NCBI GenBank assembly: GCA_963662155.1
Contig: OY759261.1
Location: 71,542,669-71,606,668 of the forward strand
Direction: 5' to 3'
DNA from: Lamellibrachia columna
Taxonomy: Eukaryota > Annelida > Polychaeta > Sabellida > Siboglinidae
DNA length: 64,000 nt
Below the pieces are notes generated by a model. That model was not told where the DNA came from. It saw nothing but the letters and a program-made list of their open reading frames with translations, and searched no databases. The position numbers and the translations under genes are program-made. Within the stretch, counting starts at the first letter, position 1. Each line of letters opens with the position of its first letter. Shown here one piece after another: positions 16,602 to 35,838 of this stretch.

Positions 16602-17934
16602 AGAGCAAAACCTAGCTCTATACATGGTGTTTGTTGACTTGACGAAAGCCTTCGACACAATCAGCAGAGATGGCTTATGGCAGATACTACGAAAGATTGG
16701 TTGCCCTGACTTGTTTGTCGACGTAATACGTTCATTCCACGAAGGGATGGTTGCCCGAGTGCAAGATCAGGGTCAAACGTCAGAGCCATTCCCGGTAACA
16801 AATGGCACCAAGCAAGGCTGTGTGATGGCACCACTGTTATTCACATTAGTATTCTCAGCCATGCTCAACGATGCGTTCCATGACAACGACTTGGGAGCAC
16901 TCATCCGGTTCCGAACTGATGGAAACGTATTCAACCTTCGACGACTCAAATCCAGGACAAGAACTTCCAAGTTACTGATCAAAGACCTACTATTCGCTGA
17001 CGACTGTGCACTTCTTGCACATACGATCGATGACATACAAGCGATTACCAATGCTTTCGCCAGATCCGCCCGCCGTTTCGGATTGACTATCAGTCTGAAG
17101 AAAACCGAGGTGATGTATCAGCCGAAGCCTGGAGCAGACTACTCGGCTCCAATCATCACCATCGACAACAACCCACTAAACGTCGTCGACAAGTTCACCT
17201 ACTTGGGTAGCACGCTATCACAAAATGCCATGATAGACGATGACGTCTCAACACGGATTGGGAAAGCGAGCGCGTCATTTGGCAGACTCACCAAGCGCCT
17301 TTGGAATGAACGCGGTGTACGTCTTGCCACCAAAATCAGTGTATACTGTGCCGTGGTGCTACCAACACTGCTATATGGCTGCGAGGCGTGGACACCATAC
17401 CGCCGACACATACGGAGACTCGACCAGTTCCACATGCGCAGCCTAAGGCGCATCGCTAACATCAAGTGGCAAGACATGATTTCCAACACCGAGGTCTTAC
17501 AGCGCTGTGCACAAAAGGGCATCGAACACCACATCAAGCGTGCACAACTCCGCTGGTCCGGGCACCTTGTGAGAATGGCCGATGACCGCATCCCTAAGGC
17601 AGTGTTCTATGGAGAACTGGACGCCGGCAAACGAACACGGGGAGGGCAGCGAAAGAGATACAAGGATGTGCTCAAGGCAACACTAAAATCATGTGGCGTG
17701 CCTCACAACACCTGGGAGTCCACAGCGATGGACCGTGCCCTCTGGCGTCGCACATGCCACGTCGGCCTACACGAATTCGAAAAAAAAGCGGTGCGACGCC
17801 CTGAGAGAGAAGAGACTAAGACGGAAGGCTACCCAGCCTTCATCAAACACTGTCACCTTTGTGTGTCGTGTCTGTGGACGACAATGTGCATCGCGGATCG
17901 GTCTGTTCAGCCACAACCGTACAAACGATACTGA
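16507..17934 (+). CDS. G reverse transcriptase palm, thumb and C terminus
   Basis: 475 codons. True homology starts at CFRAQRSTIDMIFATRQVQE, then MVFVDLTKAFDTISRDGLW, NGTKQGCVMAPLLFTLVFSA, LLFADDCALLAHT (catalytic box intact), KFTYLGSTLSQNA, VLPTLLYGCEAWTPYRRH and LRWSGHLVRMADDRIPKAVF. After an eight-A run near 17780 the frame changes. The original C terminus, with finger CRVCGRQCASRIGLFSH, is in the frame that ends at 17938. The first residues before CFRAQ are frameshift noise. Confidence 0.8.
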   Translation: MHYISLITSCFRAQRSTIDMIFATRQVQEKCREQNLALYMVFVDLTKAFDTISRDGLWQILRKIGCPDLFVDVIRSFHEGMVARVQDQGQTSEPFPVTNGTKQGCVMAPLLFTLVFSAMLNDAFHDNDLGALIRFRTDGNVFNLRRLKSRTRTSKLLIKDLLFADDCALLAHTIDDIQAITNAFARSARRFGLTISLKKTEVMYQPKPGADYSAPIITIDNNPLNVVDKFTYLGSTLSQNAMIDDDVSTRIGKASASFGRLTKRLWNERGVRLATKISVYCAVVLPTLLYGCEAWTPYRRHIRRLDQFHMRSLRRIANIKWQDMISNTEVLQRCAQKGIEHHIKRAQLRWSGHLVRMADDRIPKAVFYGELDAGKRTRGGQRKRYKDVLKATLKSCGVPHNTWESTAMDRALWRRTCHVGLHEFEKKAVRRPEREETKTEGYPAFIKHCHLCVSCLWTTMCIADRSVQPQPYKRY

Positions 17935-17938
17935 CTGA
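17785..17938 (+). pseudogene. G C-terminal C2H2-type zinc finger (shifted frame)
   Basis: Read in the +1 frame after the A run, the sequence is EKKRCDALREKRLRR followed by FVCRVCGRQCASRIGLFSH and a stop. C-x2-C and a trailing H fit the nucleic-acid-binding finger found at the end of this LINE group. One extra A uncouples it from the RT. Confidence 0.65.
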
Positions 17939-17975
17939 GGTCGAGATCCGTCGTACCGACGGCTCACTCCATATA

Positions 17976-18008
17976 TAATCATTTCACACTTTTACATGAT
18001 TATTGTCA
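17976..18008. repeat. 33-bp direct repeat (target duplication of G), right
   Basis: Matches 15023-15055 at 32 of 33 positions and directly follows the G 3' UTR. Confidence 0.9.
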
Positions 18009-18319
18009 GGTAACTTTAGTGATATACATATAAGAATGCATACAGACACGAAAAAGACGTGTTTATTGCTCTGTTTATGGCGTTTTTGTAAGGTTTCACG
18101 TTTCATGAAAAATTAAAATACTTACCTTTTTGCCAAGCGAGATCAACAGCAACAGCCAGATAGAAAAAATTGTATGGCGATTGACTTTGCGTACATTCGA
18201 CGAGGTTGGTGTAATTTGGATTACCGATTTTGACATCGACTTTGTATGGACGATTACAAATTCTAATAAGTATCTTGCACGAGTGGACAAAAATTGGTAC
18301 ATGTACAATAAAACTGGTA

Positions 18320-19396
18320 AAGAACCCAGAAATTCACTGTCAGATGGTGTTGTAGCTTCTCAGAATTTTTTACCGTTTCAAACGGTGTCAAGCAGGGTGG
18401 AATCCTTTCTCCACATCTTTTTAACGTTTACATGGATGACTTAAGTGTAAATTTGAATAAATTACAAATTGGCTGTCTTTATGCAGGAACCATAATGAAT
18501 CATATGATGTATGCCGATGACCTTTGTGTTTTTTCACCTAGTGTTGCGGGGTTGAGAAAACTCACCGATTGTTGTGCCAAGTATGGCAATATGTTTGATA
18601 TAACGTACAATGCCAAAAAATCTGTCTGTATGGTTATTGATAACAAACCTAGGGACAAGAAAAATATTCATCCTGTTGTTATCAATAACCATACACTACC
18701 TTACACTGAAAAATGTAAATACCTTGGCCATATTATAAACAATAATCTTACTGATGATGACGATATTGCCAGGCAGAAAAGATGTATCTATGCTCAGGCA
18801 AATGCTTTAGCCAGAACATTTTACTTATGCAACAATTCCATTAAAACAACTTTATTTAATTCATACTGTGGTTCAATGTACACCTCAAGTCTTTGGTGTA
18901 ATTTTAAAAAACAGAGTGAAAGGTATTACTGTCGCTTATAACAACAGTTTTAGAATTATACACAACCTGTCACTCCGCTGTAGTGCAAGCCATATGTTCG
19001 CTACTAATTATGTTAAATCCTTTAATGAACGTATTCGCTCATCAATTTTTAGCCTTTTATGCCGGTTGGAAAAATCCGACAATATACTTTTTGTGAATTA
19101 TCTTCACACTTTTATTTATTATCAAAGTCCATTGATTAAACATTGGATTGATCAATTGTATGCTTTTAATTCATGATGTTTGTACTTTTATACAAATATA
19201 TTTTTTTATCCTTACTTATCTTATATATATATTTTACTACACGTCATGTATTTATATTTATAGATATATATTTTTCTCAATACATGTACCTCTATTGTTC
19301 ATCATGTGTGTATATGTATGTTTTTTTTAACCTATATGTATTTATAATATTATGGGCTCTTGCCTGAAATAAAACATTAAAAACATTATTAAAACG
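18320..19396 (+). mobile_element. LINE RT 3' fragment with YADD box
   Basis: From about 18350, in changing frames: FTVSNGVKQGGILSPHLFNV, then 18432-18941 with YMDDLSVNLN, NHMMYADDLCVFSPSVAGL (catalytic YADD), NAKKSVCMVI and CKYLGHIINNNL, then 18868-19176 with NNSFRIIHNLSLRCSASHMF. The 3' end has GGGCTCTTGCCTGAAATAAAACATTA, with an AATAAA signal and CATTAAAAA-like tail. The element is 5'-truncated inside the RT. The clade is not certain. Confidence 0.8.
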
Positions 19397-20700: not shown

Positions 20701-21066
20701 ATAAATAATTATTAATGCAAAACATACCTTAACATTTATGCAAAATGTAACGTTGTTGTTTTCATTACCAATCAATGACAATAAAATGAAAATAAGCAGT
20801 TTATTTACAAAATTGACACCATAAACAGATACATGATATTGTTGGCCCTTGCATTCTTTAAAAAAGCAAAATTGTCATAAAAAATAATTATTTTAATGAA
20901 CCGGAAAATCGTTGCAATTCTCTTTAACATTAAATCGTCTGTAACCGGATGATGGTATATGTAATGATGTGCATAATATGTTATTGTGTAAAGCACAATA
21001 TAATTTTGAAATAAAATAAAATTGTGCTAACCATAAAGTTTGACTGTTTTGACATGTTGGCAATAC
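20701..21066 (+). repeat. Type 1 intron unit, diverged partial copy 0
   Basis: Aligns by eye with 21067-21430 (CCTTAA-AATG start, ACAATAAAATGAAAAT, GATGATGGTATATGTAATGA, AAAGTTTGACTGTTTT) but breaks off at TTTTGACATGTTGGC, where the others have the acceptor TTTTGGCAG, so no exon remains. Confidence 0.7.
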
Positions 21067-22135
21067 AAAACACCTTAAAATGTATCCAATTCGTAATGTT
21101 GTAGTAACTTCGTTGTTTTCTTTACTGACCAATGACAATAAAATGAAAATATGCAGTTTATTACAAAATTGGCACCACAAACAGGTAGAGGCTATGAGAT
21201 GTTAGCATTCTTTAAAACGAGCAAAATTGTCATAAAAATAATGATTTTAATTAAGTGGTAACCAATGCAAATCGTTGTAAATTTAACATAAGTTATTTAT
21301 TAACAGATGATGGTATATGTAATGATGTGCATGATACATTATTGTACGTTATTATATGTTAAAGCACAATATAATTTAGAAAAAAATAATGAGATTGTGC
21401 TAATCCTAAAGTTTGACTGTTTTGGCAGGATGACCTGTATGATGATTTGCCTACACCTGTCGAAAGGGTATGTTACATTTTGTATATAGTACCCTGTTTA
21501 CACTACATTAACAGCAATAGTGATCACGATAGCAAGATTGGAAGTTGTGTTTACACGAAGCTGTTTCCGATCAGGATTGCGATCGCGATCCCACTCAATT
21601 TGATCTTGATTGATTTCTCATATTGTACAAATGCAAATACAAAACCTAGAAGACCAGTAAGTATACATTGTTGCATTTCTAACTTACAAAAGTGTGAGTT
21701 GTGCAGTTTTTGTTTTCTGAATTGAATAAAAATTAAAGTGAGCATAAATATTTTTGCATTCCAAAGAATATGTTGAGCATCAACATAGGTCCAGTCAAGC
21801 TTTGCATGGGGGGCATGGATGTGTTGGCCCTATTTACCATTCTCGGTAATATGTGTTGTCATATTTGTTAGCATGCCACATAGATTTTATTGTAACAAAA
21901 TTATGTAAACATTGCATAAGTATCACATTTTGGTCTAACAGTAATGTACCTAAACATTTATTACTGTTAATTTCACTTGTGTTATGTGAGTGTTTTTTAA
22001 TGGCCAAATTTTGGTTGGGTAAAATCTGAAAATTAACTCTTCAAAAATCAATGTTTTGTTCATCAGATTGATTAGTGGTACATTCATGTCTATAAATTTT
22101 CAATATACCATCTTTAGTTACAGAGATTAATTAAC
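21067..22135 (+). repeat. Type 1 intron unit, copy 1a
   Basis: Intron upstream, a 39-nt exon at 21429-21467 and downstream intron. The same order and spacing recurs at 23876-25040. The copy ends at GAGATTAATTAAC, where the hAT-containing insert begins. Confidence 0.8.
21429..21467 (+). CDS. Candidate micro-exon 1 (DDLYDDLPTPVER)
   Basis: TTGACTGTTTTGGCAG acceptor, 39 nt, then GTATGTTA donor. Both borders fall between codons. The peptide DDLYDDLPTPVER has an acidic stretch, a tyrosine with Leu at +3, and Pro. It belongs to the type 1 set with micro-exons 2 and 3, which share the acceptor, donor and intron sequence. No start codon, stop or other domain is visible nearby, so it would be an internal exon of a larger, unidentified gene. 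Confidence 0.5.
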
Positions 22136-22349
22136 TCTAATGCTAGACCTTCCAATATTCTACCAAAAAAAAGCAGAAGATCTTCCTCTTCCTGTAAAAA
22201 AAGATAGAAAACTTTTTCTCGAAAAAACCAACCAAATTGTATGACACCAAATAACAATGTGAAGAGCATAACAAACATTATATACAGTTTATTTACAATC
22301 TCAGAGCAGACTACATTATATCCATTATCATAGGTGTGTCCTGGCTGCA

Positions 22350-23330
22350 CACTCAGGTCTCAGACGACCGGTCTATGATCCTCATTGTATGCCACGGTGA
22401 CATGCTTCGTTGTGGCGATGGGGTCTTTTGAAGGCCTGAACTGGTGGCACTCGCAGTCCTTGTTGATGTTGTGTGCAGCAGGCTACATAGCGTTTCTGCA
22501 CCTAGTGATGCCCAGAACTTCGTGCACAGACTGAAGACCCTCTCGACAGGGGCCTAGTCGTTGGGAAGGATGAGTAGAGTATTCACGAGTGTAGCCAGGT
22601 GCTCGAACCTGACCTGGCTGATGGCATCGTTGTTCTTAAACAGGTAGAAGTGCTGAGCAATCTTGGTGTCCGGGAACGTCTCCTTTATCAACTTCATAAA
22701 ATGGTCACCAGTGGCAAACACAAACTAGCAGAACAAAACTTCAGCTTTTGTGACCTAAAAAGAAAGGAATTGCACAATAGAAAATACTGTATGGAAGCTT
22801 GGTTCCCATACTAGCCTACTACAGTAGTAGTAGTAGTAAGATAGTAAGAAATTAAATAAATAATAATGCATCATGAATTACCTAAATTATGTATCGCCAT
22901 CCATTATGTATACTGTGATTCTTTATTCGGGGAAAATGGATGTATGGAATTCCTTGCCAGAGAATATTACATTCCATTAAAAAAGAATATAGAAATATTG
23001 GAACAAGATATTGGCTAATTATTAAAGGCTAATCAGTAACCTTGCAAATGCCCATTATTTTCATTTGTACCTGGTCATCATGTGAAGTGGCAGAATAGTT
23101 GCGAAGTATAGCCAGGCAAGCCTGTATCCCCGAAGATTTGGCATCCTCCAGTTTCTGGTAGTGTTTCGTCAATGCTTTTGGTGATCCACGGGAACTCGAT
23201 GGCATATTCGTCTCGAAACTTCCCGGCGTACTGTTTCTTTTTCCCCAGTAGATTACCTCCGTTCTCTCGTGTCCTTTTACCCATCTTACTTTGTGGCACA
23301 AGGAAACAACTATTATTGACTAACAACACT
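22350..23330 (-). pseudogene. hAT transposase fossil with internal deletion
   Basis: On the minus strand, from 23295 down: KYAGKFRDEY-like AGKFRDEYAIEFPWITKS (the head of hAT transposases with a BED-like finger region), TKHYQKLEDAKSSGIQACLA in another frame, then about 22700-22640 DHFMKLIKETFPDTKIAQHF. This is followed directly by the C-terminal dimerisation region: FEHLATLVNTLLILPND, a stop, APVERVFSLCTKFWASLGAE. The RNase H-like catalytic core between them is missing. It lies between type 1 units 1a and 1b. Confidence 0.6.
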
Positions 23331-23404
23331 TTCTTTAACAACGAACAAAACCTTAAAACGACGACTATAGATGTCAAAGTTCATGAGGATTCAAATTTGT
23401 TGTA

Positions 23405-23680
23405 ATCATCATCGTCCTTCAGCTTCCACACACAGGGTGCATCGCTTCAGTGATTCTCCACTTAAAAGACCTCCACCAGACTCGATCTTGTGCCACTTCC
23501 AGCTGATTTCGTGTTTGCCAGGTTCATTAGGGCTAGTCAGGTTAGCTTTGGATGGCCCTTGGGTCTTCGCTCATCCATCTCTGCTTCGGCCAATGCTCTT
23601 TTTGTAGGGGTGTCTTTTCTGACATGTGCAGCAGATGAACAATCGACACTGGAATGCATTCACTTGACCAGTTAGAGTTG
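23405..23680 (-). pseudogene. LINE RT C-terminal remnant (AQDRVWWR tail)
   Basis: Minus strand, changing frame: MDERRPKGHPKLT near 23575, then VAQDRVWWRSFKWR near 23490 and DAPCVWKLKDDDD at the end. RR-P-x-G-x-P-K-L-T and AQDR-x-x-WR are typical of the basic C-terminal tail of several LINE RTs (compare the RGRQKKRWEDNI tail of family C). Only the last 90 or so codons survive, with at least two frame changes. Confidence 0.45.
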
Positions 23681-23875
23681 ACGTCATAGTCCAGATTTCT
23701 GAGTCGTAATCGTAAATGGGCGGGGTGAAAATATATGGAGAAAATGTTTGACTGCAATATCATTTGTTTCAAACCATTCAATAGAACCTTTTAATATTCA
23801 TGCCGGGTGGTGCTGCGATTACTGGCATAGTTCGAAAAAAGTGGAAAGTTTTCAAAACGTAGCGAAAATATGAAA

Positions 23876-25040
23876 ATATGGAATAAATACAAAACACCTT
23901 AAAATGTATCCAATTTGTAATGTTGTAGTAACTTTGTTGTTTACTTTACCGACCAATGACAATAAAATGAAAATATGCAGTTTAGTACAAAATTGGCACC
24001 ATAAACAGGTAGAGGCTATGAGATGTTAGCATTCTTTAAAACAAGCAAAATTGTCATAACAAATAATGATTTTAATTAAGTGGTAACCAATGCAAATCAT
24101 TGTAAATTTAACATAAGTTATTTATTAACAGATGATGGTATATGTAATGATGTGCATGATACATTATTGTGTAAAGCACAATATAATTTTGAAAAATAAT
24201 GAGATTGTGCTAATCCTAAAGTTTGACTGTTTTGGCAGGATGACGTCTATGAAGAAATACCTGAGCAAGTCGGAGGGGTATGTTATATTTTCTATATAGT
24301 ACCCCATTTACACTGTATTAGCAGCAATAGTGATCGCGACAGCAAGATTAGCAGCATTAGTGATCGCGATAGGAAGGTTGGAAATTGCATCCCACTCAGT
24401 TTGATCTTGATTGATTTCTCATCCTATGCAAATACAAAACTTAGAAGACCAGTGAGTACACATCATTGCATTTCTAACTTGCAAAAGTGTGAATTGTGAT
24501 GTTTTGGGAATATGTTTGTTGAATTGAATGAAAATGAAAGTGATCATCAATATTTTTGCATTCCAAAGAATATGTTGAGCATCAACATATGTCTGTTCAA
24601 GCTTTGCATGGGGGGCATGGATGTGTTGGCCCTATTTGCAATAATATGTGTTGTCACATTTGTTAGTATGCCACACAGATTTTATTTTTACAAACTTATG
24701 TAAACATTGCATAAGTATCATATTTTAGTCCAACAGTAATGTACCTAAACATTTATTACTGTCAATTCCACTCGTGACTGTTAATTAACTTTTATATAAC
24801 ATATTGTTTCAATAATTATGACAGTCCACACAATATGCAGCAGGTTAGTATGAATCCTTTTGGGTATGTGTTATGGGAGTGTTTTTTTAAATGGCAACAT
24901 TTTGGGTGGGTGAAATCTGAAAATGTACTCTTAAAAAATCGATGTTTTAATTATCAGACTGATTGTGGTACATTCATGTATATAAATCTTCAGTATACCA
25001 TCTTAATGGTCAAAAGTAAGAGAGATTAATTAACAATAAT
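23876..25040 (+). repeat. Type 1 intron unit, copy 1b
   Basis: Parallels 21067-22135 throughout, including the shared GCATGGGGGGCATGGATGTG and TTACTGTTAATT-like segments downstream of the exon. It has its own small tandem duplication of an AGCAGCAATAGTGATCGCGA-like segment at about 24323-24372. Confidence 0.85.
24239..24277 (+). CDS. Candidate micro-exon 2 (DDVYEEIPEQVGG)
   Basis: Same acceptor (TTTGACTGTTTTGGCAG) and donor (GTATGTTA) as micro-exon 1, 39 nt, borders between codons. The peptide DDVYEEIPEQVGG contains YEEI, which is the textbook preferred ligand of Src-family SH2 domains once the tyrosine is phosphorylated. That use is inference from the motif. The frame is kept relative to micro-exon 1 despite many substitutions, which argues for selection on the reading frame. 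Confidence 0.5.
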
Positions 25041-25179
25041 GAGTTTACTAGCAATATGTGTCACTCCTATTACCATAAAGTAATTAATTTTCACAAAGAT
25101 GCAAGTTGTAATAAATATAATTTTTCAGAGTAGTTGTAAAGTACCATTCAAGTATAGCACATTAACCAAAGGAAATATG

Positions 25180-25310
25180 GAATATAATACAAGACATACC
25201 TTAAAATGTATCCAATTTGTAATGTTGTAGTAACTTTGTTGTTTTCTTTACCGACCAGTAACAATAAAATGAAAATGCAGTTTATTACAAAATTGGCACC
25301 ATAAACAGAT
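25180..25310 (+). repeat. Type 1 intron unit, truncated copy
   Basis: Starts ACATACCTTAAAATGTATCC and stops after GGCACCATAAACAGAT, where the other copies continue toward the exon. No exon is present. Confidence 0.75.
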
Positions 25311-26868
25311 AAAAGGGCCAATGTCCCAACAAATTTACAATTGATAAAAATCGTGTCTTTCGTCTCTCAGAACGTGAATTTTAAAGTTAGATTAAAATAA
25401 ATGTCAACATGGATTGCACACACCAAGAGCTATCCTGACATGTACAGTTTGTCTGCCTCATTAAAGTTAATACTGGTAAAAAAATTAAAACGTGCAAAAA
25501 ATGGACAAAATAGCAAGTCCGTTTGAAGTTTCCAAATTTGGAATCACTACCACACAAAAACGTTATTGTAGTTTTTATTTGAGTATGCAATGCAGTTGAG
25601 GTATGTATCAGGGGTGTACAGTATAACAATCCTGTATAAAAAGATATACATTTTTTACAGTATTGTTTCTTATATGACCACTTTTTGTGTGTCCATCATC
25701 ACTGGTTTATAAGGGTCCACAATATTCATTTATGATATTGATATGTTATTGATATGTATTTAGACAAACAATCCCTTCATACATGGTTAGAGAAGGAATT
25801 TAGAAAAAACAGTGATGGAGCTAAACCTAAATGTAAGAAAAATATGGTATGTTAAAGTTAAAACTTATATATATATATAAACTTATATAAACAAGCAAAT
25901 ATCCTGCTACAACTACCTTGATGGCGGTACCCATATTCAAGATATTTCCTGATCTGGCATAAAAAAGGATTTAGGGTGTGTCTGGCATCACTGGCGGGAA
26001 AACTGAATAAACACCGTTAAGAATGCGAATTACAGTGACCCATACGAACTATAGTGGTCAGATACATGTTGCTCTTCCTATTTATGAAAGCAAAGCAACA
26101 CATATTTTCTAAACAAATTATTTTCAAAACAAAACGTGGTGATGCTGGACACTTGCTGGTTACTGGCTACCAGCCCGATAAGTTTGTACTTCTCTAGTAG
26201 CCACTTCATCTTCATTGTTTTTTTTTACTTTATATTGTACCTGATGATGATGAGGAAATAAATTTACTTGCTTACTGGTAAAAAAATATCTTCTTTAGGA
26301 CCCATTTCTGTTGCGCAAGAGCTCTCACTTTGCATTACAAAAACAAGATAGGGGTGTTAGCACAACATTATAATGTAATTTCGGTGAAATTGGAAAGTAT
26401 TTTTGGGGAAAAGTGGCCTTCAAAACTCAGTGGTGATGCTGAAGGTGCAGTTAGGGGAAGGTGCATCCACGCATTGTGAAATGTACTCGTTACTTTTACA
26501 TTAGAAGACATGCAAGGCAAAACAAAACATTTATAGACCCCTATTTTAAGAACAATATAATTTATGGTTTACCCATCATAAGTTATGCTATGAGTACTTA
26601 TATTCTGAATTCAGTTTTATTACATTAAGGACAACAGTTGTCCTTGCACATTTCCTTTAATGAAAACCTTGTTGTGGAGATTAACATACCCCAACTACAT
26701 CCACCAGTAGCACTAGGGTGAGGTGCCAGCACTACATATATCACACCAACTGCTGGTTCCCCATGAATAGGATATAAAAGAAGGTCAATGGTTTGAGGAA
26801 GGATACAAAGAGGCTATGTAACAACATGTCTGGGCTTTCAAAAAAAAGCTCTGGTGTAGCATAGGCAA
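25311..26868. other. Unassigned interval
   Basis: No known domain in any frame. One exon-like open stretch, 25764-25846, lies between a TTTAG and a GTATGT but does not keep phase with the micro-exons (see rejected list). AT-rich, with poly-T near 26219. Confidence 0.35.
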
Positions 26869-27008
26869 TCAGGAAAAAGGAGCATGACAGACAGGACTGA
26901 CATTACTTCCACTAACAACGTTCTACCAATGTCAGTACAATCAGGAAGAAGGAGCATGACAGACAGGACTGACATTACTCCCACTAACAACGTTCTGTCA
27001 GTGCAGTG
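26869..27008. repeat. Two-copy tandem repeat, unit about 70 bp
   Basis: The segment around AGGAGCATGACAGACAGGAC and CACTAACAACGTTCT occurs twice in a row (from about 26869 and 26939), with a few differences. In the antisense frame it keeps an open reading frame, but the peptide is not recognised. Confidence 0.85.
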
Positions 27009-28764
27009 TAATGCTGAGGAAAGACGGTCAGAGCCCTTCAAAAACACAAGGTGAGAAAGAGCCTCTCTGCCCATGAATAACTGATGGAGGCGCAACACAT
27101 TCTAGCGAAGACAAGGCGACCATTTCTCACAGATCGTCACTTGAAGAGAAATTGGACAGGAAGCATGGTTTCTAAGACGTTGCAGCAGCTCGCATGACAT
27201 AAGACAATACAACGTGTGAAGGCCTGTCATCTGCATTTAGAAGTGAATGAGTTGATTAATAGGCCGTATAACTCTACATTCCTCCTATACAAGTAGTAGG
27301 CGGTGATGGGTAGTAAGAAGGAGCGAACTATATTTTGACTAACTGTCGTTGCTGCCTGTTTAATTCGGTGAGGAAAATTCAGATACAAAAATTCATCCCC
27401 TTCTTCTTGTCCTGACCAGCAATGTTTGTAGCTACACATTACAGAAAAGTATGTCATGAATGAGTGGACCCAAAGGACCACATGATGGTGTCGGTGGTAG
27501 TACCAAGTGAAGTACAGATGACGCTGTGTAACGGGGCTGCATGATCACCTGTGCACAAGATTTCTTCTCGTTGGCAGAAACAGTACGAATTGTCATCCTG
27601 TATGTCTTTCCCAGTAATGAGGACATGAACTATGCTTGTGAGGAGGTATCAGAGTGTCTAACGTCTGATGTCAGTCCACTCTGCCACAAACAATGCAGAC
27701 AACTAGCTAACCGTGCGTGAAACATCGTGTTTCCAAGCTTACTGTATAAAGGACAGCCACCAGGTTGTCGAGGTTAGGCAAGTGTGGCCTCTACATCACC
27801 ACCAGTGGGTTGTAGAAGCTCCTATCCAATGTTATAAAAGCTGTATGGTGTCTATTCTCTCACATGTAGGTGAAGGAGCCTTCACAAATGCATCATCATA
27901 ACTTACTTTTAATCAGTTGTAAATAAACAATTATCTTTGGGTCAGTTTTGCCCAACCAGTGTCCAACGTCACCGCAGGGTCACTAGTCAAATGATGCCTA
28001 TTTTGGAATGTTATTTGTTGATTTCTTGGCAGTTATACCTTGCTTGGTCAACACTTTGTAACCCCGACGTTCAAGCGTTACATGGGTTTACACAAATTAT
28101 CTCCGAACGAGTTGAGATTAAATATTTGAAAAAAAAATTGCAAAAAAAAACAATAAAGATTCCATGTTTATATAGGGTTACATGGCACAACATGTTTCAG
28201 TAATTTTCCTGGACATTTTCTACATTATGATGAAGGATATTGATGTAGCCTTATTAAAGATATAGTGTGTGTCCAGCATAACCAACATCAGTCATTTTGT
28301 AGCTCATTTTGACATGTTCCAATCCCTGGACTTATAAAATTTACTGACTATGTGTCGAACAAAATTCACAACACTTATGAAAGAACTGCAGCAAGTGAAA
28401 AAAGGCATATCCAAGATAAAAGCAATGCAGAAGACTATGACCAAAGTAACAATGACAGAAAAAACGAAATTTCCAAGTCAAATGTCGTGTCGTAGCTTTT
28501 GTTTCTTATTTATTGACATGTACACTAGATAAATCGAGAAGATTTTCCTGTGTCCCTCTCATTTGAAATGTTCAAAGTGTATGTAGTATTGTAAATAATC
28601 GTCGGTGACGCTGGACACATGACAAAAAGCATGTTCGAATTCATGTGACTGTTATAAAAAATTATTCATATTAGAGTTTGATATTTATGGAAAATGTACG
28701 TCAGTGTACGTTTTTTTAATAATACATTTAATTTTTACCTGCTACAACACCAGTTGTACATTTT
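27009..28764. other. Unassigned interval
   Basis: Several open stretches under 95 codons on both strands, none recognised. It ends with a polar, tyrosine-containing frame at 28313-28495 that is listed separately. Confidence 0.35.
28313..28495 (+). other. Open polar frame with three tyrosine motifs, ending in TAG
   Basis: The frame reads VPIPGLIKFTDYVSNKIHNT, then YERTAASEKRH, and after a short stretch EDYDQSNNDRKNEISKSNVV and stop. It looks protein-like (polar, low in stop-prone codons) and has tyrosines in TDYV, NTYERT and EDYD contexts, about 450 bp upstream of micro-exon 3. There is no AG acceptor at a suitable place and no start codon in frame, so it may be an accidental or decayed frame. 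Confidence 0.2.
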
Positions 28765-29052
28765 TTTATTATTTTAATTAAGTGGTAACCAGTGAAAATC
28801 GTTGTACATTTAACATAAGTTATCTATTAACAGATGATGGTATATGTATTGATGTGCGTAATATGTTATTATGTAAAGCACAATATAATTTTGAAAGAAA
28901 ATAATGAGATTGTGCTAATCCTAACGTTTGACTGTTTTGGCAGGATGATGATTTTGCTGCACCTGTCGGAGAGGTATGTTATATGTTATATCTAGTACCC
29001 TGTTTACACTGCGTTAACAGTGATAGTGATTGTGACAGCAAGATTGGAAGTT
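28765..29052 (+). repeat. Type 1 intron unit, partial copy with exon
   Basis: Starts at ATTTTAATTAAGTGGTAACC and carries the same upstream intron, acceptor, exon and donor as copies 1a and 1b. It is cut off at GCAAGATTGGAAGTT by LINE copy E2. Confidence 0.8.
28944..28973 (+). CDS. Candidate micro-exon 3 (DDDFAAPVGE)
   Basis: Same splice borders as micro-exons 1 and 2, but 30 nt, so nine bases shorter while still a multiple of three. The peptide DDDFAAPVGE has lost the tyrosine (Phe in its place) and the +3 hydrophobic residue. It may be a degenerate or non-phosphorylatable member of the set. Confidence 0.4.
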
Positions 29053-30046
29053 AAAAAAATCATTATGACCAAGGTGATTATAAAGGTTTAAAGACTAAAT
29101 TGCACAGCACAGACTGGGGTGATATCCTTGGCATTTATAACTATAAATGACCAATGGCTATGTTTTAAGGGATGTATTAAAAAGATAGAGGATGAATTCA
29201 TTCCTTATCAACTAGTGATTAATATTAACATATGTCAAGTGAAACTAACCTTAAACAAGGAATCAGTAAAGAAAAGAAGGAACACACTTTATGGAAGCGT
29301 TATATTGAGACAAAAGAAGGGAAATACTATACTGAATATTGTAGGACTAGAAATCAAGTATGTATACCAACGAGGAGGATACAGAAGGAATTTGAGATGA
29401 AGCTAGCAACAGAGGCTAAGTCGAATCCTAAAGCAGTATGGAAATACATGAACTCTAAAACCAATAATCCGGAAGGTGTTTCAGACCTAAAAATATACCC
29501 TAATGATCCTAAATCTAGACTTACAGATTCTCATAGGGAAAAGGCAGATGTCTTAGGACGCTATTTTCAAGTGTTTTTTCTCTAGAGCCAGATGGTGACA
29601 TCCTTCATATCCCTCCAGTGGAGTTAAGACACAACATGGAAGAATTTGCTATTAATGAGGAAATCGTTAAGAAAATAATTTTAATGTGGATAAATCAGTA
29701 GAACCAGATGGTATTCATCCTAGGTTGTTAAATGACGTATCTAATCATTTATCTATACAACTAGCTAGGCTATTTAACAATTTACTTGCTGTGGGTGAAT
29801 ACAAAGTGAATGGAAACAGGGAAGGATCTCTGCTATATTTAAAAGGGTAGTCGAAAAAAAGGCAGTAAGTCTAACGAGTATAGTATACAAATGTATGGAG
29901 AACTGTGTCAAAGACCATATTGTTAGTCATATGACGAGAAATTAACTTTTCAGTATGCAACAGTTTCGGTTTATTAAAGGTCGTTCTACGGTACTCCAAC
30001 TGTTAAATGTTATGGACTCATGGACTAGAGCTTTAGATAGAGGAGA

Positions 30047-30141
<95 letters not shown>

Positions 30142-30187
30142 GTATCTAGACTTCATGAAAGCTTTCGATATTGTCCCTCATAAAAGA
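29053..30187 (+). mobile_element. CR1-like LINE, family E, truncated copy E2
   Basis: Same linker and RT order as E at 10960-12060: YDQGDYKG, KKEHTLWKRYIETKEGKYYTE, RRIQKEFEMKLATEAKSNPK, KADVLGRYFQVFF, FRFIKGRSTVLQLLNVMDSW and DFMKAFDIVPHKRL, with many stops and small deletions. A TA tract has grown inside the palm coding region. Both ends are internal to E, and it separates the type 1 and type 2 exon units. Confidence 0.85.
30047..30139. repeat. (TA)n inside E2 reverse transcriptase
   Basis: About 90 bp of nearly pure TA, located where element E reads GAATCTGTAGACGTTGTATATTTGG. It therefore arose within the copy and not before insertion. Confidence 0.9.
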
Positions 30188-30728
30188 TTGTTGATTTACT
30201 CATTGAATAAAAGTTCCAGTATGGTTGTCCAGTTGATATAAAACATTATCAGCATTACAAAATATATGATTATCTATAAAAATTATGCACACATGTGCAG
30301 TCCCAAATTGTGGTTTTGGCTAACAATATTTTGAACATCAAATATGCTTAAATTAATTAATTGGCATGTTTTATTTATGTGGTATGTATGTATTTCTGAA
30401 CGGATTTCAATTACGAATCAATGGTAACTAAAAATGAAATAATCAAGTCACTGATGACAGTTGTGAAGAACTTGTTAATTGTTAAGACACTGTCTCCAAT
30501 ATAGCTCTTCTTATTATGATATGTATATATTTTATATATTCGTAACACAATACAAAAGACAGAAAACGTGTCATTGTAACAGTGAAGTTTTATTACCACA
30601 CAGTCCGGTCAGGGGTTCATATCACCACCTTTTGACAATGGCTCATATATATGTGTGCATATATACTCTATTAAATATAAGCTGGGAATAGTATATATTT
30701 GTAGTCATCATTATTTTTATATCCATAG

Positions 30729-30770
30729 GAGGATGACTACTTAGAACTACCTCCACAGCTACCTCCTCGG
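30729..30770 (+). CDS. Candidate micro-exon 4 (EDDYLELPPQLPPR)
   Basis: Acceptor TTTTTATATCCATAG, 42 nt, donor GTAAGTCTTGAA, borders between codons. EDDYLELPPQLPPR joins an acidic tyrosine motif (Y with Leu at +3) to PQLPPR, which fits the class II SH3-ligand pattern PxxPxR. Type 2 introns differ from type 1 introns, but the peptide keeps the DD-x-Y / LP layout, so the two sets may share an ancestor. Confidence 0.5.
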
Positions 30771-31517
30771 GTAAGTCTTGAATCGCTATGCTGATTTACT
30801 CATTGAATAAGTTTCAGAATGGTTGTCCAGTTGATATAAAACATTATCTATAAAAATTATGCACACATGTGCTGTCCCAAATTGTGGTTTTGTCTGAAAA
30901 CGTTGTGAACACCAAATATGCTGAAATTAATTAATTGTCGTGTTTTCTTTATGCGGAATGTGTGTATTTCTGAATGGGTATCAATTACGAATCAATGGTA
31001 GCTCAAAACTTTGGAAGAATCAAGTCACTGAGGTCAGTTATGAAGAACTTTACAGAACGCGATCGTTGGACATACAACATCAAGCATGATCTACGTATCC
31101 GTTTCAATCAATTATAAATTAAGCCAAAACACTCAACAAAAATATTTATGTAAATATTTTCATCATGGTGTGTTTTAATTAATTGACATTTACAAGTTAA
31201 ACTGATCAACTGCATTTGTCAACTTTTTCAGATGGTAAAATGTGACGTTTTACACTTTGACATAACTATTAAGACTCTTTTCCCGCAATATTATCATACG
31301 TATATGTTTTATATATTCGTAACACAATGCAACATACAGAAAATATGTCATTGTATCCGTGAAGTTTTATTAGGCAAACAGTCCCGTCAGGGGTACAAGT
31401 CACCACCTTTTGGCAATGGCTCATAAGGCTCATAACTATTTGTGTCCATATATACTCTATTAAATACAAGCTGGAACTAGAATATAGTTGTAGTCATTAT
31501 TGTTTTTATATCCATAG

Positions 31518-31559
31518 CCGAGTGAATACTTTGAACTGGGTCCACAGCCACCACCCAGG
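31518..31559 (+). CDS. Candidate micro-exon 5 (PSEYFELGPQPPPR)
   Basis: TATATCCATAG acceptor, 42 nt, GTAAGTTTTGAA donor. PSEYFELGPQPPPR keeps tyrosine, acidic residue and Leu at +3, and the PxxPxR pattern (PQPPPR). It differs from micro-exons 4 and 6 at many positions yet has the same length and frame, as expected for an older duplicate under constraint. Confidence 0.5.
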
Positions 31560-32364
31560 GTAAGTTTTGAATAACTATGTTGATTTACTCATTGGAATAA
31601 AAGTTCCAATATGGTTGTCCAGTTGATAGAAAAACATTATGCGCATTGCATTAGATTATCCATAGAAATTGTGCACAAGTGCAGTCCCAAATTGTTTTTT
31701 TTCTGAAAACATTGTGAACACCAAATATGCTGAAATTAATTAATTGGCATGTTTTCTTTATGCGGAATGTGTGTATTTCTGAATGGGTATCAATTACGAA
31801 TCAATGGTAGCTCAAAACTTTGGAAGAATCAAGTCACTGAGGTCAGTTATGAAGAACTTTACAGAACGTGGTCGTCGGACATACAACATCAAGCATGATC
31901 ACGATCTACGTACCTGTTTCAATCAATTATAAATTAAACAAGAACACTTAACAAAAATACTTATGTAAATAGTTTCATCGTGGAGTGTTTTAATGAATTG
32001 ACATTTACAATTTCATTCAGGTCAGGTGATGAATTGTCAGCATTAAATGGATCGACTGCATTTGTCAACTTTTTCAGATGGTAAAAATGTGACGTTTTGT
32101 ACTTTGACATAATTGTTAAGACACTTTGTCTCCAATATAGCTCTTCTTATTATGATATGTATATATTTTATATATTCGTGACACAATACAAAAGACAGAA
32201 AACGTGTCATTGTAACAGTAAAGTTTTATTACCACACAGTCCGGTCAGGGGTTCATATCACCACCTTTTGACAATGGCTCATATATATGTGTGCATATAT
32301 ACTCTATTAAATATAAGCTGGGAATAGTATATATTTGTAGTCATCATTATTTTTATATCCATAG

Positions 32365-32406
32365 GGGGATGACTACTTAGAACTACCTTCACAGCTACCT
32401 CCTCGG
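32365..32406 (+). CDS. Candidate micro-exon 6 (GDDYLELPSQLPPR)
   Basis: Same borders as micro-exon 4, from which it differs at two bases, both amino-acid changing (E to G, P to S). The P to S change removes the first proline of PQLPPR, so the class II SH3 pattern is lost while DDYLELP is kept. The surrounding intron is nearly identical to that of micro-exon 4, so this is a recent duplicate. Confidence 0.5.
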
Positions 32407-32785
32407 GTAAGTCTTGAATTGCTATGCTGATTTACTCATTGAATAAGTTTCAGAATGGTTGTCCAGTTGATATAAAACATTATCTATAAAAATTATGCAC
32501 ACATGTGCTGTCCCAAATTGTGGTTTTGTCTGAAAACGTTGTGAACACCAAATATGCTGAAATTAATTAATTGTCGTGTTTTCTTTATGCGGAATGTGTG
32601 TATTTCTGAATGGGTATCAATTATGAATCAATGGTAGCTCAAAACTTTGGAAGAATCAAATCACTGAGGTCAGTTATGAAGAACTTTACAGAACGTGATC
32701 GTTGGACATACAACATCAAGCATGATCTACGTATCCGTTTCAATCAATTATAAATTAAGCCAAAACACTCAACAAAAATACAATT

Positions 32786-33298
32786 TAGACTGAGTTTTGA
32801 TGACCCCCAGTTTCTGATGTAATGGATGGTGAGAGGTGAAGTTCAGATATTGGTCTGTGTGCGTCTTCTTCCGATACACTAGGAGTTTCACTGTTCCATC
32901 TTCCTTTCGTATCATAAGTGTGTCAAGGAAGGGCAGGGAGTTATCGCTTTCTTCTTCATATGTGAACTTAATGCTGCCTGTTGAGATGCTCTGTCAGTTC
33001 TTGTTCACATCCCTTCCTCACTACTTCCATCATGTCATCCACATATCTCTTCCATAGTTTCAGTTTGCATGTTATCGATGCTGTGAGAATAGCCTGCTGT
33101 TCCAGTCATTCCATGAAGAGATTTGCAATTACAGGTGACACCAGACTTCCCACTGCTGTGCAAAACTTCTGCTGATAAATGGTGCCGCTGAAGCTAAAAT
33201 ATGTAGTTGTGACGATGAACTTCAGCAGCTCCATTATGTCATCTACATTTAGGTTTGTCCATAGTTTCATTTCTGTGTCATCTTCTAGTTGCTTCTGG
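32786..33298 (-). pseudogene. Penelope-like element RT fragment
   Basis: Minus strand: ELLKFIVTTTYFSFSGTIYQ, QKFCTAVGSLVSPVIANLFM, a stop, then LKLWKRYVDDMMEVVRKG with the catalytic YVDD. In another frame follow LPFLDTLMIRKEDGTVKLLV and YRKKTHTDQYLNFTSHHPLH. The QKFGTAMGSPVSPIVAN-like block is the hallmark of Penelope-like RTs. No GIY-YIG endonuclease region is present. It abuts the GA-rich repeat at one end and type 2 unit D at the other. Confidence 0.8.
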
Positions 33299-33388
33299 AG
33301 AGAGAGAGGGAGAGAGATGGAGAGGGAGAGGGAGAGGGAGAGGGAGAGGGAGAGAGAGAGGGAGAGGGAGAGGGAGAGAGGAGAGGGG
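33299..33388. repeat. (GAGAGG)n-type GA-rich microsatellite
   Basis: Runs of GAGAGA and GGGAGA for about 90 bp, directly at the end of the Penelope-like fragment. Confidence 0.95.
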
Positions 33389-33944
33389 GGTGTTCATCTC
33401 TCTGTTGTTACTTTTGTGACAATGAATAGTATCAATCATATATCAGCAGTTAGACTAGCCGATAAGTTTTCTTTGTGAATTGTTATGTAAGATCACAAAG
33501 ATACCACCAACCTCCATGTAGGTAATGCTCCATATCGATTACACAAAAACCACCACACCTGAGTATGACATACTTTAGATATGGCCCCTTATTATAATTA
33601 AGGGTTTGATTATAGTATGAATATGCAATCCCATTAAGCACACATAATTTCAATATTTATAGGACTAAATCTTTGACAGAGGCGTATTCATGCCGCGTTC
33701 TAGGCAGTGTGCTCGTATTCACCGTGAATAAGAGTTCACAAACCACACAAGCCTCGAATAATATAGACGTTATGTCACAAGTCACTTATGTCACAAACCA
33801 TGGACAATATGTCTCAAAAAGGAGCGATATGTCCCAAAAAATATGATATGTACTAAATTATTATAAATGTCATGGTTATGCTTAAAACTCGTTGTTGTAT
33901 TGATTCATTTTATTCAAACATTAGCAACATGATACAAAACAACC
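33389..33944. other. Unassigned interval
   Basis: No coding signal. ATGTC(A/C/T)CAA-like words recur about four times at 33770-33835, a weak degenerate repeat. Nothing else stands out. Confidence 0.4.
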
Positions 33945-33981
33945 ATGTATATATATATATAATATATATATAATATATATA

Positions 33982-34029
<48 letters not shown>

Positions 34030-34030
34030 T
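33945..34030. repeat. (TA)n tract with short (CA)n end
   Basis: TATA repeats with small AATA interruptions, then ACACACACA at 34020-34028. Confidence 0.95.
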
Positions 34031-34239
34031 TTACATATGAATGCGATCTAATTATACATACCTGCAGAACAACGCATGTATAAATGTGTATACAATGTTT
34101 GAAGGGGGTAAACACGAAGTCATTGACTTTTATGTAAGTTTAGTCCTAACAATCGTATTAAGGTAAAAGTATTAAGTTTCTCACACGTGTACTTTTCCTC
34201 ACGCACCAGAATGACAATTAGCTTATTTTTCATAAATTC

Positions 34240-35160
34240 TCAATGTATTTATTGTGAAATAAAATACACAGGTTATCAAATATTAAATAGCAGAATTCAA
34301 TATATCAATAATTACATTTCCACAGTAACACATCTGTGAAATAGATGTTTTGTGTGCTTAGATTTAAATGCAATTATATAATTAATGTTTTTTATGTCAT
34401 CACTTTGAGAATTCCATAATAGCACTCGAGAATATAGATCTCATTGTTCAGCCATTCTAAATCATGACTAGCTCTCAACGAGTACGTTGTTTCCCGCCTA
34501 ACAAATAAACGCTGAATGTTTGATGGCAAACAGCGGTAGTAAGCTTTGTACATAAATAATAAGGTTTTCAGTTCTATAATATCTAGAAATTTTAATATAT
34601 GCAATTGTTGAAAAAGTGAATTCGTATGATCCAAACGCTTGGCACCATACATAACGTAGATAACACTTTTTTGCAACAAGAAAATACCACTAATATTTGT
34701 TGGATATGTATTACCCCATACTTCTACACAGTATGTTAAATAAGGCAAAAACAGAGAACAACATAGAATATACCTACTATTCCTGTCAGACAGATGACTA
34801 CGTCTATACATTACAGCTGTAGTTTCGGAAAGCTTTGATGTTACGTATTTAATATGAACATTCAAATTAAGTAAATACATACACACCCAAACATTTTGCA
34901 ACTTTTACTCTTTCAATAATAACATTTTGTATATTTATAATGACATCTTCACTGAGCATACAATTTCCAAATAGCATATAATTTTAGTTTTAGATATATT
35001 TAATGTTAACCTATTTACTGCAAACCAAGTAGATATTCCAGCACGCTACACACTGTATCACTCAGTCTTTTGATATTATTATAAAAAAAAATTTTATCAT
35101 CTGCAAAGAGGATATATTTTACAAGCTTAAAATGATATGCTGCACATATCATTAACACAC
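34240..35160 (-). mobile_element. CR1-group LINE RT 3' fragment (J)
   Basis: Minus strand. From about 35150: KYILFADDKIFFYN (the FADD box), LDTVCSVLEYLL-type palm end, then 34392-34901 with HIKYVTSKLSETTAVMYRRS, YILCCSLFLPYLTYCVEVWG and NSLFQQLHILKFLDIIELKT, the standard thumb and C terminus. Stops and frame changes lie between the two parts. The upstream end coincides with the start of the duplicated block at 35163. Confidence 0.75.
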
Positions 35161-35162
35161 AG

Positions 35163-35455
35163 TTTATGACAGAACAACACAACGACTCATGTAATAAAAG
35201 CTTCATATTTATTATTCATCTTGGCAATAAAATGGGACAGTCTGGCCAGATCTCTCTGGGGCCAGCTGTGACACCCCGAGAACTGGATGCAAGACCTGGA
35301 TATTTCACATGACCGGACTGCGGTCCTGGGCCAGCTACTTGATCATGATCATGTGACTGCGGTCACATGACCAGAGAATCCTGGGGTCTGCATCCCCCTG
35401 GGTGTCCAGCCAGCCCAAAACGAAGTGTTTAGAACAAATGCCCCCCAGGCGTTTT
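35163..35455 (+). repeat. Direct repeat block P, copy 1
   Basis: Starts TTTATGACAGAACAACACAA and continues through CTCATGTAATAAAAGCTTCA and GGTGTCCAGCCA to AATGCCCC. It is repeated with small deletions at 35839-36083. It is GC-richer than its surroundings and contains a palindromic E-box pair. The nature of the block (LTR, satellite or regulatory duplication) is not resolved. Confidence 0.8.
35349..35370. promoter_or_regulatory. Palindromic E-box pair in block P, copy 1
   Basis: TCATGTGAC and its exact complement GTCACATGA are separated by TGCG. CATGTG/CACATG are E-box cores, and TCATGTGA resembles the M-box bound by MITF/TFE-type bHLH-ZIP factors. Binding is inference. The arrangement is kept in copy 2 (35988-36009) apart from one base of the left arm. 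Confidence 0.4.
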
Positions 35456-35559
35456 GAAATGCTGACCATCCTATCATTTTTTGAAAGGTGGAGAAAGGGG
35501 GCTGGTTGGTGGGTGACGTGTTTCCTTGTCCGTGCTACGAGACAAAGATGGCCCAAGGA

Positions 35560-35730
35560 AGGGATGTTGTCAGATCCCACTGCTGGGATAATGTTTCTAA
35601 TTGGTCAGACACCCCCTGCAGTGAGGGAATATAAGGGGTGCTGCCAGCTCCCATAGCAGGGTTAATGCTTGTAATTGGTCAGAGGCCCCCTGCGGTGAGG
35701 GGATGAACCTTTTAATTGGTCAGCTTTCAT
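35560..35730. repeat. Tandem CCAAT-type units in the block P spacer
   Basis: TAATTGGTCAG occurs three times (about 35598, 35663 and 35714). The first two are followed by CCCCCTGC(A/G)GTGAGGG. ATTGG is the inverted CCAAT box. A TATAAGG lies at about 35630 after the first unit. This looks promoter-like, but no downstream gene is visible. Confidence 0.4.
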
Positions 35731-35838
35731 TCCCCCAGGCCCTTGGTAGGGATGGTCCCTGGCCTCTGGTAGGCTCCCAAGATGCATCGGTCAGTTGTTC
35801 TGACATAAACCACGCACAATGATAACACTATGCTTCAA

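What the first reader, a model, noticed from the sequence alone, without database searches (positions are those of the whole stretch)
21429..32406. Tandem array of six frame-preserving micro-exons encoding tyrosine/proline docking peptides
Six short segments (39, 39, 30, 42, 42 and 42 nt) each sit between a pyrimidine-rich AG and a GTATGT or GTAAGT, all start and end between codons, and all translate to one small theme: DDLYDDLPTPVER, DDVYEEIPEQVGG, DDDFAAPVGE, EDDYLELPPQLPPR, PSEYFELGPQPPPR, GDDYLELPSQLPPR. The introns around them are tandem duplicates, so the array grew by duplicating intron-exon units. This would let splicing set how many docking peptides a signalling protein carries. I do not recognise such a gene. 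Exon status and function are inferred.
Basis: partly seen in the sequence, partly recalled or inferred. Interest (0 to 1): 0.88.

Follow-up and report, generated by a model that had tools for sequence, protein, structure and literature searches.

The report
Tandem micro-exons encoding tyrosine docking peptides
An animal chromosome appears to carry a duplicated array of tiny exons, most of them adding a short signalling peptide built around one tyrosine, and in the tyrosine families the exons have changed faster than the DNA around them.

Summary
They belong to a larger locus of the 880-Mb host genome, C1:71.31-71.68 Mb: more plus-strand exons downstream, and an inverted, partly decayed paralogue with the same order A, B, E. 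Of 17 distinct A, B and C exons with AG/GT borders, 16 are open in phase 0, 12 and 5 in the other frames; eight of the 16 came from scans that required this. Units grew by tandem duplication, some over 99% identical. Between copies, A and B exons differ more than adjoining introns, mainly at nonsynonymous sites (0.33; flanks 0.16, synonymous 0.21). A hydrophobic residue at +3 from the tyrosine persists in 11 of 13 tyrosine exons. Best reading: micro-exons encoding half-ITAM-like/SH2 docking peptides, some with an SH3 ligand, under diversifying selection. Splicing is unseen, the rest of the gene was not found, several units are broken, and no relative turned up in the protein searches.

The parts
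20711..21054 (+). A0: truncated A unit; upstream intron only, acceptor and exon lost
   Evidence: BLASTN to A1 and A2 units; sequence at the break
21062..22142 (+). A1 unit (intron-exon-intron)
   Evidence: 21062-21981 is 85.9% identical to 23886-24776
21429..21467 (+). micro-exon A1, DDLYDDLPTPVER, 39 nt, phase 0
22143..23885 (.). insert between A1 and A2 units, not shared with the A2 unit
   Evidence: gap in the unit-to-unit match
23886..25041 (+). A2 unit
24239..24277 (+). micro-exon A2, DDVYEEIPEQVGG, 39 nt, phase 0
25173..25311 (+). start of the A3 unit, cut off by an insert
   Evidence: 92% identical to 23874-24011
25312..28767 (.). insert splitting the A3 unit
   Evidence: gap in the unit-to-unit match
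28768..29052 (+). exon-bearing part of the A3 unit
   Evidence: 83-84% identical to A1 and A2
28944..28973 (+). micro-exon A3, DDDFAAPVGE, 30 nt, phase 0; in-frame loss of 9 nt against A1 and A2, no tyrosine
29053..30188 (+). insert between arrays A and B; reads like a LINE fragment (my reading of the sequence)
   Evidence: sequence; borders
30189..30473 (+). B0: truncated B unit, downstream intron only, exon not present
   Evidence: 79.5-83.8% identical to the intron starts after B1-B3
30476..31288 (+). B1 unit
30729..30770 (+). micro-exon B1, EDDYLELPPQLPPR, 42 nt, phase 0, class II SH3-type ending PQLPPR
31289..32109 (+). B2 unit
31518..31559 (+). micro-exon B2, PSEYFELGPQPPPR, 42 nt, phase 0, ending PQPPPR; acceptor just below the strict cut-off
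32110..32781 (+). B3 unit, 98.5% identical to B1 over 671 bases
32365..32406 (+). micro-exon B3, GDDYLELPSQLPPR, 42 nt, phase 0; no strict PxxPx[RK]

Best explanation
The segments are phase-0 micro-exons of one plus-strand gene whose disordered, probably cytoplasmic region is built from tandemly duplicated intron-exon units. Most A and B exons give one tyrosine docking peptide (YxxPhi, usually with an acidic residue before it); most B exons also carry a proline stretch, in two of the window's three a class II SH3-type ligand. Because every intact exon begins and ends between codons, exons can be added, lost or skipped without a frame shift. Two tyrosine exons of the window joined in order give YxxL/I-x(9-10)-YxxL/I, an ITAM-like spacing. 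Phosphorylation by a Src/Syk-type kinase would let SH2 proteins dock, and diversifying selection has altered the residues that set SH2 choice while keeping the tyrosine. Shown: anatomy, duplication, frame conservation, nonsynonymous excess over flanks, colinear inverted paralogue. Inferred: splicing, cytoplasmic place, phosphorylation, partners, alternative inclusion.
For: Exon borders and frames. Of 17 distinct A, B and C exons with AG/GT borders and lengths divisible by 3, 16 are open in frame 0 (the 17th, with a stop codon and a poor acceptor, near 71675.7 kb), 12 in frame 1 and 5 in frame 2 (the 17th translated by hand). Units with no exon left (A0, B0, the minus copy P1, the plus B unit near 71656.1 kb) are outside that 17. 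Exonic length changes are 9 nt and 3 nt; 6 of 22 intron indels are multiples of 3. The same exon order A, B, E on plus and, inverted, on minus. Pooled B exon divergence 0.403 against 0.130 in flanks (21 pairs from 7 of 8 intact B exons). Five independent pairs: pN 0.330 against flank 0.158, P = 1.4e-6; pS 0.213, not different from flank, P = 0.30. Tyrosine-less C exons as a built-in control: exon 0.076, flank 0.106. L/I/V/M at +3 in 11 of 13 tyrosine exons and an acidic residue at -3 to -1 in 11 of 13. Phase-0 introns split ITAM and ITAM-like motifs in CEACAMs (PMC2832619, passages); the last two CD79a introns are phase 0 (PMC4034164, passages). The genome encodes SH2 domains: 50 matches, a lower bound.
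Against: No RNA evidence. Eight of the 16 open exons (B4-7, Bp, C1-3) were found by scans that required an open phase-0 frame, so that count is partly built in; looking again at unit matches without that demand turned up two spoiled plus-strand B units, one with the exon replaced by an insertion and one with an in-frame stop. No conventional coding exon, transmembrane segment or domain was tied to the array (each covers part of the locus). pN over pS is not itself significant (P = 0.10), and for A1/A2 and B1/B2 alone pS is as high as pN. In frame 2 the pooled pN/pS also exceeds 1 for A (1.26), B1-3 (1.32) and all B (1.09), though not for B4-7 (0.78). Amino-acid similarity of diverged window exons is not clearly above neutral mutants (P 0.05-0.19 for A1/A2, B1/B2, B2/B3; 0.91 for B1/B3). 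Motif retention under neutral change has P about 0.08-0.12 per family. A3, Bp and the C exons lack the tyrosine. ITAM spacing 6-8 is met by 0 of 63 exon chains.
Confidence: 0.57

Rival explanations
1. A secreted, fast-evolving micro-exon gene like the schistosome MEGs: splicing of short symmetric exons makes variable secreted peptides, and the acidic tyrosines are sulfated or structural, not docking sites.
For: MEGs have exons of 6-81 bp, mostly multiples of three, between introns of 0.1-5 kb (PMC10526429, passages). Exon divergence above intron divergence would fit a host-facing protein; the start of an abstract on accelerated evolution of such genes was in the listing (PMC4350168).
Against: Class II SH3-type endings in B1 and B2 and a hydrophobic +3 in 11 of 13 tyrosine exons point to the cytoplasm. 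MEG exons are mostly 15 bp and what they share is a signal peptide, which I did not look for. Window CpG observed/expected is 0.57, which I take, weakly, as a methylating genome unlike a schistosome's.
Confidence: 0.17
2. A dead or dying array: old exons of a real gene, now pseudogenes that no longer splice.
For: Broken units on both strands: A0, B0, one B unit with an insertion and one with a stop on plus; P1 and both E-like copies on minus. A3 and Bp have no tyrosine. The locus is full of retroelements.
Against: Frame 0 is the one frame open in all but one of the bordered exons (with the scan caveat given above); neutral decay does not raise nonsynonymous above flank divergence. The six window exons and seven further plus-strand exons plus E keep borders and frame.
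Confidence: 0.18
3. The units are mobile or intron-generating elements, and the exons are unrelated pieces of older coding sequence between young introns.
For: Introns are more alike than exons; parts of the introns are dispersed repeats found elsewhere in the genome.
Against: Exon-spanning matches were found only at this locus (one search scored 40 of 87 candidates); the intron between A3 and B1 starts as A-type and ends as B-type, and truncated units lack the exon, both natural for tandem duplication; exons within a family align in frame.
Confidence: 0.05

Closest known systems
ITAM/ITAM-like cytoplasmic exons (CD79a, CEACAM type)
   Same: YxxL/I motifs with acidic residues before them and phase-0 introns in the tail (PMC2832619 and PMC4034164, passages)
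   Different: Spacing here is 9-10 residues, outside 6-8 and only partly inside 6-9; many half-motif exons in a tandem array; proline tail in B exons
Botryllus fester co-receptors (FcoR)
   Same: Tyrosine core motif Y-x-x-I/L/V, an acidic residue before it on half of them, and splicing that swaps motifs at some loci (PMC12065747, passages)
   Different: No Ig_3 match at this locus among the 150 best of 830 candidates; the passages I saw describe no tandem micro-exon array
Schistosoma micro-exon genes
   Same: Short exons, mostly multiples of three, long introns; its reference list cites tandemly repeated exons with 81-base repeats (PMC10526429, passages)
   Different: Secreted proteins with a signal peptide; the word 'tyrosine' does not occur in the main text
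Arthropod Dscam cytoplasmic tail
   Same: Tail exons with predicted SH2/SH3-binding and YXXL motifs, some included or skipped (PMC6851185, passages)
   Different: In the passages its arrays of alternative exons are for Ig domains; no tandem array of homologous tail micro-exons is described there
SLP-76/BLNK and HPK1 docking tyrosines
   Same: A1 resembles the HPK1 site SDDDpYDDVDIP listed as an SH2 ligand (PMC3514216, table passage); amphioxus SLP-76 has a DYEPPP motif (PMC5431462, passages)
   Different: No SH2 or CNH match at the locus

Membership tests
ITAM | two YxxL/I separated by 6-8 residues (PMC2832619) | tested here: not met
   0 of 63 ordered exon chains; 46 of 63 if 6-12 is allowed
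ITAM | two YxxL/I separated by 6-9 residues (PMC4034164) | tested here: inconclusive
   A1+A2 has 9; B1+B2 and B2+B3 have 10 (pairs printed)
ITAM | motif halves on exons with phase-0 introns | tested here: met
   precedent
ITAM | cytoplasmic tail of a transmembrane protein | tested here: inconclusive
   no convincing hydrophobic exon in about 94 kb upstream on plus or 74 kb on minus with strict splice rules (the one hit is a tandem repeat); 5 kb of the plus part reads N
Schistosoma MEG | most of the coding sequence in short exons, mostly divisible by three | tested here: inconclusive
   true of the intact exons found, but scans looked for just that and the full gene is unknown
Schistosoma MEG | N-terminal signal peptide | not tested
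   5' exons not found
SLP-76/BLNK | C-terminal SH2 domain in the same gene | tested here: not met
   50 SH2 matches in the genome, one on C1 (63.3 Mb), none at 71-72.7 Mb; lower bound, split exons can be missed
MAP4K (HPK1) | CNH domain in the same gene | tested here: inconclusive
   5 CNH matches, none on C1; a long domain split over exons is easily missed
Ig-type receptor (FcoR, Dscam) | Ig domains in the same gene | tested here: inconclusive
   none on C1 among the 150 best of 830 candidates
MEGF10/Draper type | EMI domain in the same gene | tested here: inconclusive
   only 1 EMI match in the genome, on C12, 12 candidates scored, so the search itself may be insensitive

The most novel reading that the evidence does not exclude
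The locus is a splice-programmable phosphotyrosine array: cells or individuals choose how many and which of about a dozen in-frame docking peptides one signalling protein carries, and selection diversifies the SH2/SH3 specificity of each peptide while unit duplication and loss change their number.
Probability: 0.24. Interest if true: 0.88.

Novelty: new variant of a known kind. Interest (0 to 1): 0.7.

Why it matters
Tandem exon arrays are known for the outside of receptors (Dscam Ig exons) and micro-exon genes for secreted peptides (MEGs). An array for the inside, where each exon is one docking site, would put signalling valency and partner choice under the control of exon copy number and splicing. 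The faster change of exon than intron, with the tyrosine kept, would be a natural library for asking how SH2 and SH3 specificity evolves, and tandem units of over 99% identity on the inverted strand suggest that the locus is still changing.

Tried and rejected
Protein relatives: the six peptides joined, padded with X to 350 and 648 residues or alone (78), gave 47, 84 and 2 word-sharing candidates and none with E <= 10; no solved structure at E <= 10. Short peptide strings in papers: 2 papers hold any of the six, one of them the HPK1 site.

Domains: Pfam on three reading frames of parts of the locus gave mobile-element or sub-threshold hits, apart from one FLYWCH zinc finger on the minus strand of L011, which I take as mobile-element-borne but did not follow. 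SLP-76/BLNK was dropped; MAP4K, Ig-receptor and MEGF10/Draper identities found no support. Mirrored segments between the two arms (71420/71536, 71443/71518 kb and others) were looked at for shared 5' exons; several frames matched alike, so no coding claim is made.

Mutually exclusive splicing by intron pairing: the 25 inverted repeats shown of 105 all involve AT-rich runs; the other 80 were not seen. No Rfam family in the window at gathering score.

Novelty in print: eight searches of the paper library (with 20 of 636 listed, 47, 49, 50 with 20 of 49 listed, 57, 100) listed no title or abstract start that describes such an array. I opened seven papers, each by passages only. No wider claim is made.

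Purifying selection as the main signal was rejected: one search gave no clear excess similarity. A simple dN > dS claim was also rejected for the window exons alone; in the enlarged set only the excess over flanks is significant.

The best explanation went from 0.60 to 0.57, the dying-array rival from 0.15 to 0.18, the novel case from 0.25 to 0.24.
Full report
OBSERVATION. The six segments at 21429-21467, 24239-24277, 28944-28973, 30729-30770, 31518-31559 and 32365-32406 have the stated borders, lengths and translations. Acceptors and donors score well on approximate matrices. With strict cut-offs set after seeing them, five of the six hits on the plus strand of the window are these exons, none lies on the minus strand, and Markov-1 sequence gives 0.75 per 64 kb. 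At looser cut-offs the window has 11 plus-strand hits against 8.2 +/- 3.4 expected, which is no excess; the anatomy stands out only at the strict setting and because the hits share a theme.

ARRAY. Two intron families are involved. A units: a truncated one (20711-21054), A1, A2, and A3 split by an insert. B units: a truncated one (30189-30473), B1, B2, B3, of about 0.8 kb each. B1 and B3 are 98.5% alike over 671 bases. A0 ends where the exon would begin and B0 starts just after where its exon would end, and the intron between A3 and B1 starts as A and ends as B. This fits tandem duplication of intron-exon units with later insertions, and speaks against introns as free elements.

THE LOCUS IS LARGER. 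The host assembly has 879,693,805 bases in 30 contigs; the window is C1:71542669-71606668, about 1 Mb from the end of a 72.7-Mb contig. The hits listed in my nine answered genome searches fall on contigs C1-C15. On the plus strand the series goes on: C exons VIGTTTSSGSADSMSE (71608331), VIGTTTSSGSADSMPE (71636252), VIETTTSSGSADNMTE (71654812); B-type exons ESYYVPLRRPPPK (71657020), DYSYVPLQQPAPN (71658422), ESEYILVRKPPPW (71659102), DNEYIMVRQPLFG (71676494); and a 72-nt exon E, VIDGNNTPPRRKRDGLSPPFKPSM (71677498). These were picked by scans that required an open phase-0 frame. Two further plus-strand B units are spoiled: near 71656.1 kb the acceptor is followed by an insertion in place of the exon, and near 71675.7 kb a 39-nt exon has kept its donor but has an in-frame stop and a poor acceptor. 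On the minus strand lies an inverted paralogue: A-type exons GGSYEDIHEEVGG and VEVYKKCPAPVRR with one broken copy (71405-71404 kb), then B-type units with ENHPKKPVPQPPTR in six copies at 5.84-5.86-kb spacing (71358-71328 kb; five of six read, four of them 99.6-99.7% identical over 1.6 kb to the fifth), then two E-like copies (71316 and 71311 kb), each of which has lost one splice site. A strict scan also picked single exons DVYDDASSESSPHPGNQ (71408834) and EPAVYTHLDVTPH (71395086), both minus; the stretch with the latter sits in three tandem copies of 99-100% identity. The order A, B, E is the same on both arms; C was found on plus only. In the strict scan of 310,780 bases, both strands, 20 of 30 hits belong to these families, with 7.3 hits expected in all; two of the 20 are the single exons that such scans themselves supplied, five are the identical minus B copies, and one window exon (B2) and one minus A exon fall below its cut-offs.

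CONFINEMENT. Matches that span the B exon were found only on C1 at 71.3-71.7 Mb; the outer parts of the B intron are dispersed repeats on other chromosomes and elsewhere on C1 (40 of 87 candidates scored). For the A query the exon-spanning matches are all at this locus too (18 of 18 scored), and the C exon has three places, all here.

FRAME AND SELECTION. Of 16 distinct exons (A1-3, two minus A exons, B1-7, one of the identical minus B exons, C1-3), 16 are open in frame 0, 11 in frame 1 and 4 in frame 2. With the spoiled exon the counts are 16, 12 and 5 of 17. Exon E, the two single exons and the units without an exon are not in the count. Exonic length changes are 9 and 3 nt; 6 of 22 intron indels are multiples of three. 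In the window, exon divergence is 13/39 (A1/A2), 13/42 (B1/B2), 14/42 (B2/B3) and 2/42 (B1/B3); flanks differ by 0.058, 0.110, 0.115 and 0.010, P = 5.6e-6, 7.8e-4, 3.4e-4 and 0.092. In sliding windows no intron window reaches the exon for B1/B2 (0 of 506) or B3/B2 (0 of 507); for A1/A2 43 of 928 do, for A1/A3 63 of 178, for A2/A3 13 of 169 and for B1/B3 14 of 545, so the A case rests on less. In the enlarged set, pooled exon against flank divergence is 0.403 against 0.130 for B (7 of 8 intact exons, B6 left out; 21 pairs), 0.342 against 0.190 for A (10 pairs; the A1 upstream flank is poorly aligned there, which inflates the flank value) and 0.076 against 0.106 for C (3 pairs). Pooled pN/pS: in frame 0, A 1.83 (4 exons, A3 left out), B4-7 2.85, B1-3 0.89, all B 1.19, C 0.57; in frame 1, 0.75, 0.67, 0.67, 0.77 and 2.75; in frame 2, 1.26, 0.78, 1.32, 1.09 and 0.23. 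So frame 0 is highest for A and B4-7 but not for B1-3, and these ratios come from few sites and overlapping pairs. On five pairs chosen by me as independent: pN 0.330, pS 0.213, flank 0.158; nonsynonymous against flank P = 1.4e-6, synonymous against flank P = 0.30, nonsynonymous against synonymous P = 0.10. I read this as diversifying selection on the tyrosine peptides, with the C exons as a quiet control. For A1/A2 and B1/B2 alone synonymous sites are as diverged as nonsynonymous ones, so homogenised introns around older exons may also contribute; the A1/A2 upstream intron differs by 2.9% and the downstream one by 14.2%.

WHAT IS KEPT. Aligned on the tyrosine, 11 of 13 distinct tyrosine exons have L, I or V at +3, and 11 of 13 have an acidic residue at -3 to -1, while +1, +2, +4 and +5 hold 7 to 9 different residues. 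In eight B exons the tyrosine is kept in 7, and proline in 6 in each of three columns. Simulated neutral change keeps tyrosine, acidic +2 and aliphatic +3 with P about 0.08-0.12 per family. Of the window exons, B1 and B2 hold PxxPx[RK]; B3 and the A exons do not.

MECHANISM. Most likely each exon contributes one docking peptide to a disordered cytoplasmic region. A tyrosine followed by a hydrophobic residue at +3 is a usual SH2 ligand (established knowledge); the HPK1 peptide SDDDpYDDVDIP is a listed SH2 ligand that resembles A1, and YEEIP in A2 equals the core of the Src SH2 ligand of middle T antigen in the same table (PMC3514216, table passage). Two tyrosine exons of the window joined in order give YxxL/I-x(9-10)-YxxL/I, near but not inside the 6-8 definition (PMC2832619, passages). 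Phase-0 introns in such tails have precedent, and Botryllus co-receptors give one for splice-swapped tyrosine motifs (PMC12065747, passages). That the array is spliced, that it lies inside the cell and that exon choice varies are inferences.

IDENTITY. No SH2, CNH, Ig_3 or EMI match lies at the locus, with the limits stated in the membership table. The gene is therefore unnamed. The species is not given.

Noticed in passing
C1:71328020-71358719 (minus; L037-L039): Six tandem copies of a 5.84-5.86-kb unit; the five read are 99.6-99.7% identical around the exon and carry the same micro-exon without a tyrosine: a recent amplification.
   Followed up: partly
C1:71381344-71395274 (minus): Three tandem copies, 99-100% identical, of a stretch with the predicted exon EPAVYTHLDVTPH; only one copy was read.
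   Followed up: partly
C1 near 71656.1 kb and 71675.7 kb (L035, L034): Two plus-strand B units with a spoiled exon: one with an insertion at the exon, one with an in-frame stop.
   Followed up: partly
21062-21428 against 21468-22142: A1 and A2 introns are nearly identical upstream of the exon (2.9% different) and much less so downstream (14.2%): the change falls at the exon, as if a conversion tract ended there.
   Followed up: no
30500-30666 and 30966-31150: The outer parts of the B intron are a dispersed repeat found on many other chromosomes, while the exon-bearing middle was not found there.
   Followed up: partly
57311-58148: An uninterrupted run of 419 GT repeats, 100% pure.
   Followed up: no
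32400-42399 (minus) and much of 1-19000, 44600-47300, 58000-63400: The window holds many retroelement relics; Pfam RVT_1 at E = 9e-41 in the first stretch, the rest judged by eye.
   Followed up: no
C1:71403-71447 kb and 71511-71564 kb: Low-copy segments match in inverted order between the two arms, as if the region were a head-to-head duplication.
   Followed up: partly
window as a whole: CpG is depleted (observed/expected 0.57, TpG/CpA 1.30), as in genomes with CpG methylation.
   Followed up: no
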